Origin: Eubacteriales bacterium
GTDB lineage: Bacteria; Bacillota; Clostridia; Lachnospirales; Lachnospiraceae
Length of the DNA: 55,378 nt
Assembly: GCA_030533235.1 (NCBI GenBank)
Contig: JAUNJN010000012.1
Span: 1 to 55,378, forward strand
Direction: 5' to 3'
The first letter of the stretch is position 1; the number at the start of each line of letters is the position of its first letter. Positions 6,652-11,777 of the stretch are shown piece by piece. A model generated the notes under the pieces. That model had not been told where the DNA came from. It ran no database searches and was given only the letters and a program-made list of their open reading frames with translations. Both the position numbers and the translations under genes were made by a program.

Positions 6652-6876
6652 GAAAAGACCTCTTTTCTTATTTGAATTATAAGTGCATTTTGTTTGTATG
6701 ATGCGCACTTAATATGGTTTCTGTTTCCAAAAGTATAGCACGCGAAGGTGGTAAAGTAAATGCCGGAAAACAAATGGAACCGGGGAAAAATAATATTAAA
6801 AAATCGGGTGTTGGATGGAATAGTATGATTTCTTTCGGGCAAGAATGGATGTATCAAACAGGTGGAGGTTTCATTT

Positions 6877-7638
6877 ATGAATAAGAAAACAAAAATATAT
6901 GTGTTGGTACTTATTTGGTGTGCAGTACTCATTCAGCTTTTTATCCATTCGTCGGTTGACCGTGAGGAAAGGCTCGTACGACAAGTATTAAGTACAGATG
7001 TTGATGCCGTAACGGACAGTACGATCAAGGGCTTTGGTGTATATGGCACTGAGGTGCTTACGGAAAATGCAAAGGAACTGATTGTAAAGAGAGTTGCCGG
7101 AAAGCTTGGTATTACATCCGGCTATACAATTTCAAATGAGGTTGTTTCAGATAAGACCGTGACGCGGCTGGCAAAGCTTGGAGAGCAGGGAAACACGGAG
7201 GTGAAGCTTGTTTGTGCTATGGCAAAGGATGCATATGGCCAGGACGTTCTTGAAAATTATCTGATGGTTCAGATAGAGCTTACGGCACAGGCGAGCGGGG
7301 CAGCCGTTTCGGTCAAGGAGGATGTGATGGCATTGTATGAAAGTCTTGGAATTGTGCCGGATATGAATTTGCATATGAAAAGTCAGTACAAGGGAAAGTT
7401 GACAGATACCGAGATGGAAGAGGAAACAGAAGCGTTTCTTCGCGAACTGGATGCAACAAAGGTGTCAGAGGACCGGTTCGAAGGAGTAAAAACGGTATAT
7501 GGATATAGTAAAAATATTGATGATTATGTATATCAGGATACCAATATGGTAAATGCACAAATTGCATTTTCCTACGATGAGGAAAACGATGTCACTTACA
7601 TTCACAGAGCTCTGCCGTTTATTGACGGTCCGTTTTAA
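6877..7638 (+). CDS. YwmB-like secreted/membrane-anchored protein
   Basis: This 253-residue protein has an N-terminal hydrophobic segment (about residues 5-23, KIYVLVLIWCAVLIQLFI) acting as a signal anchor, then a two-domain extracytoplasmic region. The TGA-to-strand pattern with FGVYGTEVLTENAKELIVKR and a repeated alpha/beta layout match my memory of the YwmB/DUF1779 family, which in Bacillus lies near murA and spoIID. The start at 6877 follows GGAGG by eight bases; the GTG at 6862 overlaps that site and is less likely. It heads the plus-strand run leading into the murT-like gene. Function is unknown; an envelope role is inferred from context. Confidence 0.6.
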   Translation: MNKKTKIYVLVLIWCAVLIQLFIHSSVDREERLVRQVLSTDVDAVTDSTIKGFGVYGTEVLTENAKELIVKRVAGKLGITSGYTISNEVVSDKTVTRLAKLGEQGNTEVKLVCAMAKDAYGQDVLENYLMVQIELTAQASGAAVSVKEDVMALYESLGIVPDMNLHMKSQYKGKLTDTEMEEETEAFLRELDATKVSEDRFEGVKTVYGYSKNIDDYVYQDTNMVNAQIAFSYDEENDVTYIHRALPFIDGPF

Positions 7639-7706
7639 ATTGTGCTATAATTATATGGCTTATGTGGCAAAAAAGTGATTCTATACAAGGGAGAGAAGAT
7701 CGGGTT

Positions 7707-9062
7707 ATGAAGAAGCTAAAGTTTTTATTCGGACTATGGGTAGGAAAGGTCATTGTTGTTCTGACAAAGCTCTTTGCGAAGGAGAGAGGTACCAATGTTC
7801 CGGGTGTGTGGGCGATGAAGTTTTCGAAGGATTTTTTGTCCCATTTTACAAATATTAACTATGATAAGGTGATTTTTATCACAGGAACAAACGGAAAGTC
7901 TACAACCAATAACATGATTGTGCATTGCTTGCAAAGTGCGGGCAAGACGGTTGCGACGAATTTAGAGGGTGCCAATCTCATCACCGGCGTTGCAACAGCA
8001 ATGATAAAAAATGCAACCTTGTTTGGACGCATGAAGACCGAATATATGATTTTTGAGACGGATGAGCGGTTCTTACAACATATTTACAAGCAGCTTCCTG
8101 CAAAGAATATTTGTGTGACAAATATTCAGAAGGATCAGGTACAGAGAAACGGAGAACCGGATTACATTTATAAGAAGATTCAGAAGGTGATTACAAAGGA
8201 TACGAGACTGTTCTTAAATAATCAGGAGCCGCGAAGCAAGTCCCTGGAACGTTTTGCGGGACAGGTAGTTTATTATGGTATGGATCGTACAAAGTATTCT
8301 TATACAAAGGATGGCAGGTATGATGTTACGATGCCGTGTCCTTGCTGTGACGGTCGCATTGCGTTTGCGTATCACAACGTGGAAAATGTCGGACAGTTTA
8401 AATGTGAGGCATGCGGATTTGCATCGGAGGATTCCGTCACATATCTTGCAAAGGATATTGATTTTGAAAAGCAGACATTTATGTGTGAGGGTAAAATATA
8501 TCATGTACAGTATACACAGCCGTTCTTTATCTATAATTACATTTTGTGTATAGCACTTTGTAAGAAATACGGTATTACGGATGAACAGATTGACAAGGCG
8601 TTTGGCACCTTCAAAAATATTGGCGGACGTTTCGAGCTGCTTCGTTACAAGGACAAGGAAATCAAATATGTCCGTATTAAGCAGGAAAATCCGGAGACGC
8701 TTCAGACTGCGCTCAATTATATCAGTATGGATCGTACAAATAAGGTGTTTGTCATGGGTCTTGCGGAGCTTACTGATTTTGACCCGTATTATACAAATAC
8801 ATTTTATGCATTTGACTGTGATTTCAAGGATATGGAAGCGTCCAATGTGGATCACTACATTTGCTTCTCTGAAGCAGTTGCCTATGACAGCGCAAACCGT
8901 TTGATTTATGAAGGGATTCCTTCCGACAAAATCACGATTCTTCCGACACAGGATGCGGAGACGATTATGAAGGAAATCGAGAAGCATGAGACAAATAATG
9001 TGTATCTCATTACATGGTTGCACACATATTATGATATTCAGAAATTTCTTGGAAAGAACTAA
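7707..9062 (+). CDS. MurT-like Mur ligase (DUF1727) with atypical C-terminus
   Basis: The 451-residue protein is a Mur ligase relative of MurT, the ligase subunit of the lipid II isoglutaminyl synthase. The ATP-binding loop TGTNGKSTT is at residues 59-67. A Cys4 zinc ribbon of the MurT kind is inserted at Cys211/213/214 and Cys233/236, and the central KDQVQRNGEPDYIY region also fits MurT. The C-terminal DUF1727 part is divergent: where MurT has a KNPxGxNQ motif and an ADGRDVSW-type motif, this protein has QENPETLQ and ELTDFDPYYTNTF (about residues 352-368). With an apparently glutaminase-dead partner next door, the usual ammonia-coupled reaction is doubtful. The start follows a weak GGGAGAG site. 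Confidence 0.8.
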   Translation: MKKLKFLFGLWVGKVIVVLTKLFAKERGTNVPGVWAMKFSKDFLSHFTNINYDKVIFITGTNGKSTTNNMIVHCLQSAGKTVATNLEGANLITGVATAMIKNATLFGRMKTEYMIFETDERFLQHIYKQLPAKNICVTNIQKDQVQRNGEPDYIYKKIQKVITKDTRLFLNNQEPRSKSLERFAGQVVYYGMDRTKYSYTKDGRYDVTMPCPCCDGRIAFAYHNVENVGQFKCEACGFASEDSVTYLAKDIDFEKQTFMCEGKIYHVQYTQPFFIYNYILCIALCKKYGITDEQIDKAFGTFKNIGGRFELLRYKDKEIKYVRIKQENPETLQTALNYISMDRTNKVFVMGLAELTDFDPYYTNTFYAFDCDFKDMEASNVDHYICFSEAVAYDSANRLIYEGIPSDKITILPTQDAETIMKEIEKHETNNVYLITWLHTYYDIQKFLGKN

Positions 9063-9074
9063 GGAGGTGTCCGT

Positions 9075-9818
9075 ATGAAATTAAATATTGCATGGTTATA
9101 TCCGGATACTTTGAATTTACATGGAGACAGAGGCAATGTCATGGCATTGGAGCGTGTGGCAAAGATGCTTGATATGGAGGCGGAAATCACACGCGTGGAT
9201 TCCTATGAACAACTAATTGATTTTGAGAATACGGACATCATTTTGATGAACCCGGGTGAGGTACGTGCCGTAGAAAGACTTGTGGATGCACTTGGTAAAC
9301 AGAAGGATGCACTCTATAAATATATTGAAGACGACAAGGTATTGCTCACAATCGGTACAACAGGAGCGTCTTTTGGTAAGGAGCTTGTGTACGAGGATGG
9401 TCGTAAATTTGCATGTCTTGGTTTGCTGGATATGGTTGCAACTGAGCGTAAGATGGTTTACGGAAATGATATCTGGTATAAATTAGATGCAAAGCCTTCG
9501 ATGGAAATCATCGGCTCACAGATTAAGCTGCTCGATACAAAGGTAGCAAAGGAGCAGGCACTTGGGAAAATTGTATACGGATACGGAAACTGTGAGGACG
9601 GCACAGAGGGTGCGAGATATAAGAATTTGATTTATACAGATGCGTTAGGTCCGGTATTGGTTAAAAATCCTTGGTTTGCGGAATATTTAATACGGATTGC
9701 AATGGAAAATAAGGGTTGTCCGGTTGATGCAGCATCTCCGGAATATAAGCTCGAGAAGGATTCCAATGAAAGTATAAAAGCGTTTACTGCAAAGAAGCTT
9801 GCAAAAAAGGAGGCGTAG
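9075..9818 (+). CDS. GatD-like class I glutaminase-fold protein lacking catalytic Cys and His
   Basis: The 247-residue protein aligns end to end with GatD, the glutaminase subunit partnering MurT: NLHGDRGN at the N-terminus, the elbow region LLTIGTTGASFGKEL, CLGLLDM, YGYGNCEDGTEGARYKNLIYTD and LGPVLVKNPWFAEYLI. In GatD the elbow reads TICGGYQFLG with nucleophile Cys94, and the later motif reads LHGPILPKN with catalytic His189. Here Gly occupies residue 94 and the HGP histidine is Leu191; the EN-HGG segment is also gone. It should not hydrolyse glutamine. It begins 13 bases after the murT-like gene behind AAGGAGG, so the two are co-translated and probably still form a complex. Confidence 0.85.
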   Translation: MKLNIAWLYPDTLNLHGDRGNVMALERVAKMLDMEAEITRVDSYEQLIDFENTDIILMNPGEVRAVERLVDALGKQKDALYKYIEDDKVLLTIGTTGASFGKELVYEDGRKFACLGLLDMVATERKMVYGNDIWYKLDAKPSMEIIGSQIKLLDTKVAKEQALGKIVYGYGNCEDGTEGARYKNLIYTDALGPVLVKNPWFAEYLIRIAMENKGCPVDAASPEYKLEKDSNESIKAFTAKKLAKKEA

Positions 9819-9820
9819 CG

Positions 9821-10879
9821 ATGTATCCGCGTGTCGTTGTAAATGTGGAACATATGAGTCGGAATGCAAGGCGGGTGATGGAACTCGCACCTGCGGATAT
9901 GAATTTTACTGTAGTCGCAAAGGTATTACACGGACAACTTGATATATTGAAGCCTTTTTTGGAACAGACGGGCGTTACGGAGATTGCAGATGCATACATT
10001 CGAAATCTTAAAAAATACAAAGATCTGCCTGTCACAAAATGGCTGATTCGACTGCCGATGATGAGTGAGCTTGCGGACGTTATTTCCTATGTTGATATTT
10101 GTTTTAACAGTGAGATTACGGTGATTCGGGCACTCAACGAGGAAGCAAAAAAACATGGGAAATGTCAGAAGATTGTGTTGATGTATGAGCTTGGCGATAT
10201 CCGCGAGGGTTGTTCAAAGGAAGAACTGTTTCAGATAATTGCGGAATGTATCACGATGTCCAATATAAAGGTTTATGGGATTGCGTCGAATCTAAGCTGT
10301 TTTGGCGGTGTACTTCACACAGTGGAGAATATGACGGAAATTCGAGATTTGGCAAAAGAAATTGAGCGTACATTTGATATAAAGCTACAGGCTGTATCGG
10401 TGCCGAATTCAAGTGCGATTGATATGCTGGAGGCGGGAACGATTCCGGAGGGGATCAATTACCTTCGTATGGGAGAAGCCGTATGGTGTGGTTATAATCC
10501 ATCCTACGATACACCAATTCCGGGCTTTTATCAGGACACATTTACACTTGAGGCACAGATTGTGGAAATCAAGGAAAAAGCGTCTGTTCCGCGTGGAATT
10601 GTGTGTATGGATTCTTCGGGACATACACCGGAATTCACGGACCTTGGTATAAGGAAGCGTGCGCTTGTTGCAATCGGAAAGCAGGATATTGATGTGACTG
10701 CGCTTTTGCCGCATGATACGAACATGCAGGTATTAGGTGGGTGCAGTGATTATACATTGCTTGATATAACCGATTGTGAAAAGGAGTATCGGGTGGGCGA
10801 TGTCGTTTCGTTTACGATGCGATATTTTTCTGTACTTCGTTCGATGTCCTCGGATTTTGTGGAAAAAGTAATTGTATAG
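9821..10879 (+). CDS. PLP fold-type III amino-acid racemase (alanine/ornithine racemase family)
   Basis: The 352-residue protein matches the clostridial ornithine racemase (Orr) type: MYPRVVVNVEHMSRNAR, then VVAKVLHG with the PLP lysine at residue 34, LVD/MYELGDIREG, VYGIASNLSCFG, SVPNSSAIDML, LRMGEAVWCG, and the C-terminal beta domain GIRKRALVAIGKQDIDVTALLP. It likely interconverts L- and D-forms of a small or basic amino acid; the exact substrate cannot be read from sequence. It starts two bases after the GatD-like stop with a GGAGG site inside that gene's end, so it is tightly coupled to the ligase pair and may supply it with a D-amino acid (inference). Confidence 0.8.
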   Translation: MYPRVVVNVEHMSRNARRVMELAPADMNFTVVAKVLHGQLDILKPFLEQTGVTEIADAYIRNLKKYKDLPVTKWLIRLPMMSELADVISYVDICFNSEITVIRALNEEAKKHGKCQKIVLMYELGDIREGCSKEELFQIIAECITMSNIKVYGIASNLSCFGGVLHTVENMTEIRDLAKEIERTFDIKLQAVSVPNSSAIDMLEAGTIPEGINYLRMGEAVWCGYNPSYDTPIPGFYQDTFTLEAQIVEIKEKASVPRGIVCMDSSGHTPEFTDLGIRKRALVAIGKQDIDVTALLPHDTNMQVLGGCSDYTLLDITDCEKEYRVGDVVSFTMRYFSVLRSMSSDFVEKVIV

Positions 10880-10898: not shown

Positions 10899-11777
10899 AT
10901 GGTTATGAAAAAGTTGAACAGAAATGATCCGTGCTGGTGTGGAAGCGGACGTAAATATAAGGTGTGTCATGAGACATTTGATGCCAAAATTGCAAAGTAT
11001 GCAAATCAGGGACATAAGGTTCCAAGCAGAGAAATTATCAAAACTCCGGAGCAGCTCGACGGAATCAGAGAAAGCTGTAAGATTAATATTGCGGTGCTTG
11101 ATTACATAGAGCAAACAATCCATGCGGGAATGAGCACGGCAGAGATTGATAAAATTGTTTATGATATGACGACCGAGATGGGTGGTATTCCGGCACCTCT
11201 TAATTATGACGGATATCCGTACTCGGTATGTACGTCCGTAAATGATCAGGTCTGTCATGGATTTCCTTCCAAGGATGTCATTTTAAAGGAAGGAGATATT
11301 ATCAATGTGGATTGTTCCACAATCCTAAACGGCTATTTTTCGGATTCTTCCCGTATGTTCTGTATCGGAGAAGTGAATCCGGACAAGAAGAAATTGGTCG
11401 ATGTTACAAAGGAGTGTGTGATGCTTGGTCTTGAAGAAGTAAAACCTTGGGGATTTCTCGGTGATATGGGTCAGGCCGTACACGATCACGCCTTCTTAAA
11501 CGGATACACGGTTGTTCGAGAAATCGGCGGTCACGGAGTAGGTCTTCAATTTCATGAGGATCCGTGGGTCGGATATAATACAAAGCGCGGTACGGACATG
11601 TTGATGGTGCCGGGAATGGTATTTACAATTGAGCCGATGGTCAACATGGGCAAGCCGGATATTTTTATTGATCAGGAAAATGACTGGGAGGTTTATACAG
11701 AAGATGGACTTCCTTCCGCACAGTGGGAAATCATGGTGCTTGTGACAGAGGATGGTCATGAGGTGCTTTGCTGGTAA
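10899..11777 (+). CDS. map: Methionine aminopeptidase type I with SEC-C zinc motif
   Basis: This 292-residue enzyme removes the initiator methionine from nascent proteins. The N-terminal SEC-C motif NDPCWCGSGRKYKVCH (Cys12, Cys14, Cys23, His24) is typical of the longer clostridial form. The catalytic domain shows the metal ligands in order: VDCSTILNGYFSDSS (two Asp), GGHGVG (His), TIEP (Glu) and AQWEI (Glu). VCHGFP carries the substrate-side histidine. An ATG at 10905 is an equally possible start, as the ribosome binding site (AAGAAAG) is weak. It lies 19 bases after the racemase and continues the run. A role specific to that cluster is not implied. Confidence 0.92.
   Translation: MVMKKLNRNDPCWCGSGRKYKVCHETFDAKIAKYANQGHKVPSREIIKTPEQLDGIRESCKINIAVLDYIEQTIHAGMSTAEIDKIVYDMTTEMGGIPAPLNYDGYPYSVCTSVNDQVCHGFPSKDVILKEGDIINVDCSTILNGYFSDSSRMFCIGEVNPDKKKLVDVTKECVMLGLEEVKPWGFLGDMGQAVHDHAFLNGYTVVREIGGHGVGLQFHEDPWVGYNTKRGTDMLMVPGMVFTIEPMVNMGKPDIFIDQENDWEVYTEDGLPSAQWEIMVLVTEDGHEVLCW

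What the first reader, a model, noticed from the sequence alone, without database searches (positions are those of the whole stretch)
7707..10879. MurT-like ligase paired with a glutaminase-dead GatD-like protein and an amino-acid racemase
The GatD-like protein has Gly at residue 94 where the nucleophilic Cys94 sits, Leu191 instead of the catalytic His, and no EN-HGG segment, yet the rest aligns over its full length and translational coupling to the murT-like gene is intact. A D-isoglutamine synthase needs the glutaminase. The immediately downstream PLP racemase, two bases away, suggests that the complex may attach an amino acid (perhaps a D-form) or free ammonia to a peptidoglycan-type precursor instead. 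This reaction is, to my knowledge, undescribed.
Basis: partly seen in the sequence, partly recalled or inferred. Interest (0 to 1): 0.85.

Follow-up and report, generated by a model that had tools for sequence, protein, structure and literature searches.

The report
Cell-wall ligase with a dead partner
A cell-wall enzyme pair that in other bacteria adds ammonia to the wall's building block has here lost its ammonia-making half, survives in this state in many relatives, and sits beside an enzyme that flips amino acids to their mirror form, so it may attach an amino acid instead, a wall-building step whose gene we could not find in the papers searched.

Summary
GatD (9075-9818) has Gly at Cys94, Leu at His189 and no ENHGG; its MurT partner also has Asn at Asp349, the third triad residue. 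Either single change (GatD C94G, MurT D349N) abolishes glutamine-dependent amidation in S. aureus. It is not decay: in a tree of 86 pairs, 40 dead pairs form one clade, all lacking Cys94, His189 and Asp349, while 42 of 42 intact pairs keep all three; dN/dS of dead gatD in types II and III is at most 0.13. Relatives of the window pair occur in six families of the class, including genomes identified as Eubacterium limosum ATCC 8486 and Acetobacterium woodii, each with one GatD-family match. Eubacterium is listed with group B2alpha walls, in which the D-Glu alpha-carboxyl carries a D-diamino acid (definition recalled). An ornithine-racemase-like gene is in 14 of 15 such genomes, 50 of 376 others; it is adjacent in 3 of 4 of the window clade and 7 of 7 type II. 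Best reading: MurT* joins a basic (D-)amino acid to the D-Glu alpha-carboxyl; GatD* is non-catalytic. Chemistry is untested; ammonia-dependent amidation is the main rival. The window's MurE looks meso-DAP type, so the product may be a side group.

The parts
7707..9062 (+). murT* : MurT-like Mur ligase (ATG also in frame at 7662); ATP motif and zinc ribbon kept, triad Asp lost
   Evidence: MurT_C PF08353 59 bits, Mur_ligase_M 45 bits; 6fqb MurT E 4e-40, 6gs2 E 5e-39; 39-61% identical to 17 other MurT*, 22-29% to canonical MurT
7884..7901 (+). GTNGKS nucleotide-binding motif of MurT* (residues 60-65 from the ATG at 7707)
   Evidence: G60 T61 G63 K64 invariant in 18 MurT*
8337..8414 (+). zinc ribbon of MurT* (CPCC...CEAC, C211-C236)
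   Evidence: zinc role by analogy with S. aureus MurT (PMC6113224 passage)
8796..8798 (+). codon of N364, at the place of S. aureus MurT Asp349 (third triad residue)
   Evidence: 42 of 42 intact pairs have Asp, 0 of 40 pairs of the large dead clade
9075..9818 (+). gatD* : GatD-like class I amidotransferase without glutaminase residues
   Evidence: 6gs2 E 3.4e-22; NF052463 102 bits
9354..9356 (+). codon of G94, at the place of the nucleophile Cys94
9504..9539 (+). segment replacing the ENHGG motif (residues 144-155, EIIGSQIKLLDT)
9645..9647 (+). codon of L191, at the place of catalytic His189
9821..10879 (+). ornithine-racemase-like (Orr family) PLP racemase, 2 nt after gatD*; PLP lysine K34 kept
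   Evidence: NF040742 E 7.5e-119, 397 bits, below cut-off 480; K34 in 43 of 43 aligned racemases; role of K34 recalled

Best explanation
The trio is an amino-acid-adding version of the MurT/GatD lipid II amidotransferase. MurT* uses ATP to activate the alpha-carboxyl of D-Glu in the peptidoglycan precursor, as MurT does, but the acyl phosphate is attacked by the amino group of a free basic amino acid, most likely D-ornithine or D-lysine supplied by the neighbouring Orr-type racemase. GatD*, unable to make ammonia, is kept as the subunit that MurT needs to work and may hold the incoming amino acid. In Eubacteriaceae the product would be the first step of the group B (2-4) interpeptide bridge; in the window organism, whose MurE looks meso-DAP type, it may be a side group or an extra cross-link site. 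Shown: loss of all three triad residues, clade, selection in types II and III, co-occurrence with the racemase, presence in genomes identified as E. limosum and A. woodii. Inferred: acceptor, amino acid, product.
For: (1) Triad lost in both subunits with ATP motif and zinc ribbon kept. Published S. aureus C94G and D349N each abolish amidation in the standard assay (PMC6113224 passages; C94G with glutamine also PMC3266927 passages). (2) In a tree of 86 pairs, 40 dead pairs (Clostridia and Bacillota MAGs) form one clade (FastTree support 0.999); Cys94, His189 and Asp349 are each in 42 of 42 intact pairs and 0 of 40 of these. (3) dN/dS of gatD* 0.064-0.129 in type II (7 of 10 comparisons; 3 saturated) and 0.047-0.090 in type III (15 comparisons), many with dS above 1. 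(4) E. limosum ATCC 8486 (G495, contig length equal to the published 4,422,837 bp) and A. woodii (G204, 4,044,777 against published 4,044,785 bp, RnfC 432 of 432 identical to PDB 9eri_C) each have one GatD-family match, a dead one. Genus Eubacterium is listed with A types and B2alpha (PMC11382707 Table 1) and the E. limosum type strain wall has both Lys and Orn (PMC4791908 passage). (5) Orr-family racemase in 14 of 15 GatD* genomes, 50 of 376 others, Fisher p 3.6e-11 without correction for kinship; adjacent same-strand in 3 of 4 pairs of the window clade and convergent in 7 of 7 type II pairs; in tblastn of 140 loci, Orr was hit only at these places (many loci reach only 1.5 kb past the match). 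(6) Five other dead pairs (L026, L027/L237, L029, L234, L236) are directly followed by a diaminobutyrate transaminase; two of these proteins tested, 573 and 562 bits, cut-off 552. (7) G442 carries both a dead and an intact GatD in one genome, so the dead kind is not merely a replacement.
Against: No biochemistry. S. aureus MurT/GatD_C94G still amidates lipid II with free ammonia at pH 8.5, so a dead GatD does not by itself exclude amidation. The racemase is far from murT*-gatD* in E. limosum, A. woodii and the other GatD* genomes read outside the window clade and type II, and G442 has GatD* but no Orr match. 50 genomes have Orr without type I GatD*, so Orr often serves something else. Window MurE has DNPR, meso-DAP type by recall, so a group B wall is not needed there. 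The wall chemistry of the window organism is unknown. The two group B carriers are one family. In an actinobacterial order 97 of 149 genomes have no MurT match, so group B walls expected there (Microbacteriaceae, recalled) probably often use another enzyme. Docking of GatD* on MurT* was not tested (structure prediction switched off).
Confidence: 0.57

Rival explanations
1. Ammonia-dependent amidotransferase: MurT*/GatD* still makes D-isoglutamine but takes free ammonia, as some carbamoyl phosphate synthetases do (recalled); GatD* is only a scaffold.
For: S. aureus MurT/GatD_C94G keeps NH3-dependent activity at pH 8.5, and neither MurT nor GatD alone is active (PMC3266927 passages). Anaerobes in ammonia-rich habitats could afford it (inference).
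Against: MurT Asp349 and the DNxxDG stretch are lost as well; in the window type a conserved stretch around PxYxNTFYAFDC stands there, more change than loss of glutaminase requires; adjacency to racemases or a diaminobutyrate transaminase; group B walls of E. limosum and A. woodii use the D-Glu alpha-carboxyl for a diamino acid (genus entry; rest recalled).
Confidence: 0.2
2. The pair adds a different small amine or L-amino acid (Gly, L-Lys, L-DAB) to D-Glu, and the racemase next door serves another pathway.
For: Orr is widespread without type I GatD* (50 genomes); five other dead pairs adjoin a diaminobutyrate transaminase; Gly and D-Ser on the D-Glu alpha-carboxyl are known (PMC11555704 passage).
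Against: Racemase adjacency in the window clade and, in another arrangement, in type II.
Confidence: 0.17
3. The complex acts on a non-peptidoglycan acceptor (capsule, poly-glutamate, cofactor).
For: Acceptor not shown; Mur ligase relatives act on other polymers (PMC11915815 passage); no peptidoglycan gene among the immediate neighbours of the window trio that were annotated.
Against: The best characterised relatives act on lipid II; a glmM-like gene follows gatD* directly or after mnmA in 6 of 7 f77 loci and murE lies 1.8 kb from gatD* in G356.
Confidence: 0.06

Closest known systems
MurT/GatD lipid II isoglutaminyl synthase (S. aureus 6gs2/7q8e, S. pneumoniae 6fqb)
   Same: Two adjacent genes, Mur ligase with zinc ribbon plus class I amidotransferase, aligned over most of their length
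   Different: All three residues of the split glutaminase triad are gone, ENHGG and DNAAD motifs replaced, adjacent amino-acid racemase
Ornithine racemase Orr (NCBIfam NF040742)
   Same: Full-length match, PLP lysine kept
   Different: 397 bits, below the curated cut-off 480; context is a cell-wall ligase; substrate untested
MurE and other amino-acid-adding Mur ligases
   Same: Expected chemistry: acyl phosphate attacked by an amino acid (recalled)
   Different: MurT has no UDP-binding N-terminal domain (PMC6113224 passage), carries a zinc ribbon and a GatD-like partner
Group B (2-4) peptidoglycan bridge of E. limosum and A. woodii
   Same: Two identified carriers of the family; bridge needs an amino acid on the D-Glu alpha-carboxyl (recalled)
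   Different: Enzyme not named in what the paper searches showed; window organism wall type unknown

Membership tests
MurT/GatD isoglutaminyl synthase | MurT ligase with GTxGK motif and Cys zinc ribbon, gene next to gatD | tested here: met
MurT/GatD isoglutaminyl synthase | GatD Cys94 and His189 | tested here: not met
   G94 and L191
MurT/GatD isoglutaminyl synthase | MurT Asp349 | tested here: not met
   N364
MurT/GatD isoglutaminyl synthase | NCBIfam equivalog cut-offs | tested here: not met
   MurT 166 of 800 and 162 of 800 bits, GatD 102 of 450 and 91 of 400
MurT/GatD isoglutaminyl synthase | Glutamine-dependent lipid II amidation | not testable with these tools
   needs assay
Ornithine racemase Orr | NF040742 curated cut-off (480 bits) | tested here: not met
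   397 bits, E 7.5e-119, model positions 1-350 of 351
Ornithine racemase Orr | PLP-binding lysine | tested here: met
   K34, 43 of 43 racemases; lysine role recalled
Ornithine racemase Orr | Racemisation of ornithine | not testable with these tools
   needs assay
Group B peptidoglycan bridge enzyme | Present in organisms with known group B walls | tested here: inconclusive
   Genomes identified as E. limosum and A. woodii carry it, but both are one family, the A. woodii wall type is recalled, and actinobacterial group B was not resolved
Group B peptidoglycan bridge enzyme | MurE not of meso-DAP type in carriers | tested here: inconclusive
   Best MurE: DNPA in G495, G204, G297, G406, G317; other non-DNPR in G442, G356, G465, G478, G391, G374; DNPR in window, G169, G424, G460, G502-G505 and type II G009, G030, G027; six of these genomes (G000, G297, G391, G424, G460, G478) also have a second MurE-like copy without DNPR
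Group B peptidoglycan bridge enzyme | Ligates a diamino acid to the D-Glu alpha-carboxyl | not testable with these tools
   needs assay

The most novel reading that the evidence does not exclude
MurT with a glutaminase-dead GatD is a family of cell-wall amino-acid ligases that arose at least twice (Clostridia, Actinomycetales) by switching the nucleophile from ammonia to a free amino acid; it includes the missing enzyme that puts the bridging D-diamino acid on D-Glu in the group B peptidoglycan of Eubacterium and Acetobacterium, and its subtypes differ in amino acid (D-Orn or D-Lys with Orr, DAB with an EctB-like transaminase), in several of them supplied by a neighbouring gene.
Probability: 0.4. 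Interest if true: 0.9.

Novelty: new variant of a known kind. Interest (0 to 1): 0.77.

Why it matters
Group B peptidoglycan was described around 1970 (recalled), but what the paper searches showed names no gene for the step that loads the bridge onto D-Glu (most subscription papers are not held). One candidate gene pair in E. limosum and A. woodii makes that directly testable. It would also show how a glutamine amidotransferase becomes an amino-acid ligase by losing its glutaminase, and would mean that genes annotated as MurT/GatD do not always predict D-isoglutamine, which matters for cell-wall recognition by hosts.

Tried and rejected
Pseudogene or assembly artefact: rejected, both genes open in the 44 dead pairs of the tree and low dN/dS in types II and III. 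Cys-His pair elsewhere in register: not seen in the alignments. Second intact pair in the window genome: none found, but the assembly is 87% complete. Racemase as a strict neighbour: rejected, 10 of the 26 pairs in the clade joining window type and type II have it adjacent (L092 and L093 end just after gatD*). Racemase tree of 43 chosen sequences: 16 of 18 tips of one group (UFBoot 83) come from GatD* genomes, but type II and G465 fall outside, so no clean co-inheritance. Racemase neighbours in A. woodii (leuS, an RNase H-like gene) and E. limosum (leuS by clustering) gave no cell-wall hint. Actinomycetales as a test of group B: 51 of 149 genomes have MurT_C; of 36 of these 51 loci read, 32 have Cys and 4 Gly at position 94; a fifth MurT of the outlier kind (G559) was found and its GatD could not be picked out. 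Which genomes are Microbacteriaceae could not be told. Of the 376 class genomes without type I GatD*, GatD residues were read at the 15 next-best loci (L046-L060, all Cys-His) and at two loci seen in other calls (L013/G063, intact); dead types III/IV may hide among the rest. G391, G442 and G478 show two GatD matches each; only the second of G442 was read (intact). The tree of 86 used the window and 85 loci; left out were L016, L017 and L030 (cut or ambiguous), L103, L117, L119, 26 of the 36 actinobacterial loci, and loci where one search found no GatD (L098, L100, L106, L109, L114, L116, L130, L133). L233, L235 and L237 are longer pieces of the L021, L017 and L027 loci and are not counted twice.

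Papers: passages only for PMC6113224, PMC3266927, PMC6085368, PMC5651825, PMC3315566, PMC10795377, PMC4791908, PMC11915815, PMC10757982, PMC9637936, PMC11555704 and PMC6113628; passages and section 4 for PMC11382707; all others in search listings only.
Full report
What is there. Three + strand genes lie in a row: murT* 7662/7707-9062, gatD* 9075-9818, racemase 9821-10879. Gaps are 12 and 2 nt, and AAGGAGG stands before both gatD* and the racemase. Upstream is a DUF1779 protein (6862-7638), downstream a Peptidase_M24 protein with a SEC-C motif (10899-11777). MurT* matches solved MurT (6fqb E 4e-40) and GatD* solved GatD (6gs2 E 3.4e-22). The racemase matches NCBIfam Orr at 397 bits, below the cut-off of 480, and no PDB chain at E<=0.001.

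The catalytic residues. S. aureus uses a triad split between the proteins: GatD Cys94 and His189 and MurT Asp349 (PMC6113224 passages). In the window these are Gly94, Leu191 and Asn364. C94G and D349N were made in S. aureus and each abolished amidation (PMC6113224 passages; C94G with glutamine also PMC3266927 passages). C94G kept ammonia-dependent activity at pH 8.5, and neither MurT nor GatD alone was active. So the ligase half can work with a dead GatD, and GatD may be kept because MurT needs it. The ATP motif and zinc ribbon of MurT* are intact.

Not an isolated oddity. Of 117 genomes searched (window's own and relatives) 38 have a GatD match. At the same-genus loci that I read (L002-L009, L017-L024, L026-L031: 22 loci) position 94 is never Cys: type I (window), type II (7 loci: 38-47% identical to the window, 36-46% in the alignment) and the more distant types III and IV; intact CGGYQ/ENHGG/LHGP proteins appear in other genera. 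In 391 genomes of the class, 14 besides the window carry a type I-like GatD*, in families f26, f43, f77, f95 and f99, which with the window's f1 makes six; the 15 next-best loci read (L046-L060) are all intact. MurT* of the window is 39-61% identical to 17 other MurT* and 22-29% to canonical MurT. In a tree of 86 pairs (441 + 236 columns, FastTree) 40 dead pairs, from Clostridia and from MAGs titled Firmicutes, Bacillota, Clostridia or Mageeibacillus, form one clade (0.999), and 4 dead actinobacterial pairs another (1.0). Residue counts: intact pairs 42 of 42 Cys, His and Asp; the 40 have 39 Gly and 1 Ser at 94 and no His or Asp; the 4 actinobacterial ones have Gly, keep Asp, and 2 keep His. 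dN/dS for gatD* is 0.064-0.129 in type II (7 of 10 comparisons, 3 saturated) and 0.047-0.090 in type III (15), many with dS above 1; type I was not measured. So the dead state is old and, where measured, under purifying selection. G442 holds a dead and an intact GatD in one genome.

Identified carriers. G495 has one contig of 4,422,837 bases, the published size of E. limosum ATCC 8486 (PMC5651825 Table 1; PMC10795377 Table 1). G204 has one contig of 4,044,777 bases; A. woodii is published at 4,044,785 (PMC3315566), and the RnfC of G204 is identical over 432 residues to PDB 9eri_C, which I recall as the A. woodii Rnf complex. Each genome has one GatD-family match at E<=1e-5, and it is dead. I had written this identity down as a prediction before checking it. 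A review table lists A types and B2alpha among the walls of Eubacterium (PMC11382707), and a genome paper reports Ala, Glu, Lys, Orn and Ser in the E. limosum type strain peptidoglycan (PMC4791908 passage). That group B means a cross-link from the D-Glu alpha-carboxyl, that B2 means a D-diamino acid bridge, and that A. woodii is group B, I recall; I found no held paper that states it for these species. PMC10757982 (passages) gives type B2 with D-ornithine for an actinobacterial genus.

Partner genes. Orr-family racemase (E<=1e-30) is in 14 of 15 GatD* genomes and 50 of 376 others of the class sample (Fisher p 3.6e-11, no correction for kinship); the exception is G442. It is adjacent and same-strand in the window, L032/G169 and L091 (3 of 4 members of the window clade; not L034/G465), and adjacent and convergent in 7 of 7 type II loci. 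In E. limosum, A. woodii and the other f26, f77, f95 and f99 genomes with a match it lies elsewhere, in A. woodii next to leuS. tblastn of Orr against 140 loci hit only the window, type II, L032/L170 and L091 loci. Five dead pairs of the same genus (L026, L027/L237, L029, L234, L236) are directly followed by a diaminobutyrate transaminase (two proteins tested, 573 and 562 bits, cut-off 552; residues read). L237 then has an alanine racemase family gene; the related L031 has such a gene after gatD and only a piece of the transaminase, on the other strand, at the end of the locus. Type III pairs adjoin an ATP-grasp protein in 7 of 7 loci (L017-L023); their relative L025 does not show it. Dead actinobacterial pairs L248 and L249 are followed by alanine-racemase-like genes. 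In f77 a glmM-like gene follows gatD* in 6 of 7 loci, in 4 of them after mnmA (glmM tested in one, mnmA in two, the rest by clustering), and in G356 murE lies 1.8 kb away. Thus several kinds of dead GatD go with enzymes that make or flip amino acids, which ammonia use would not need.

Position 3. The window's best MurE has DNPR, by recall the meso-DAP type; G495, G204, G297, G406 and G317 have DNPA, fitting the lysine-type consensus D(D,N)P(N,A) quoted in PMC6113224; G442, G356, G465, G478, G391 and G374 have other motifs, and G169, G424, G460, G502-G505 and the three type II genomes read (G009, G030, G027) have DNPR. Hence a group B wall is plausible in f77 but not required in the window organism, where the added amino acid could be a side group or second cross-link site.

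Judgement. That the window pair is not a glutamine-dependent amidotransferase: about 0.95. That it joins an amino acid to the D-Glu alpha-carboxyl, with D-Orn or D-Lys the first guess: 0.57. Ammonia-dependent amidation is the main rival. The complex could not be modelled. On print: searches for MurT/GatD with ornithine or type B, E. limosum/Acetobacterium wall terms, Butyribacterium rettgeri, Schleifer-Kandler terms, ornithine racemase with peptidoglycan and type B with Mur ligase listed no paper that by title or abstract start deals with a glutaminase-dead GatD or the bridge-loading enzyme; most subscription journals are not held. PMC11915815 (passages) treats MurT/GatD evolution in bacteria and archaea; the passages seen do not mention dead GatD.

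Noticed in passing
L234:7244-10774, L236:6896-10369, L237:8566-13349 (= L027 locus), L026, L029: Glutaminase-dead MurT/GatD pairs directly followed by a diaminobutyrate transaminase (EctB-like), in L237 also by an alanine-racemase family gene
   Followed up: partly
L233:6891-10050 (= L021 locus), L235:7672-10814 (= L017 locus) and L018-L020, L022, L023: Type III dead pairs directly upstream of an ATP-grasp protein (PF14397), 7 of 7 loci L017-L023; G028 and G036 have both this kind and the transaminase kind
   Followed up: partly
L248, L249, L250, L251: Actinomycetales genomes whose GatD has Gly for Cys94. L248 murT follows a sigma-70 gene; after gatD come two alanine-racemase-like genes, the first matching only the C-terminal racemase domain; L249 looks alike
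   Followed up: partly
L229:951-2519 (G000 contig C33): Second MurE-like ligase in the window genome (272 bits, above cut-off), without the DNPR motif; G002 has one too
   Followed up: no
MurE loci L264, L266, L269, L270, L271: MurE with unusual amino-acid-pocket motifs (CHPR, EDCR, DNSR, DNCR, EDPS) in GatD* genomes, hinting at uncommon residues at position 3
   Followed up: no
L343 (G442 C14) and L040 (G442 C48): One genome with both an intact and a glutaminase-dead GatD, and no Orr match
   Followed up: partly
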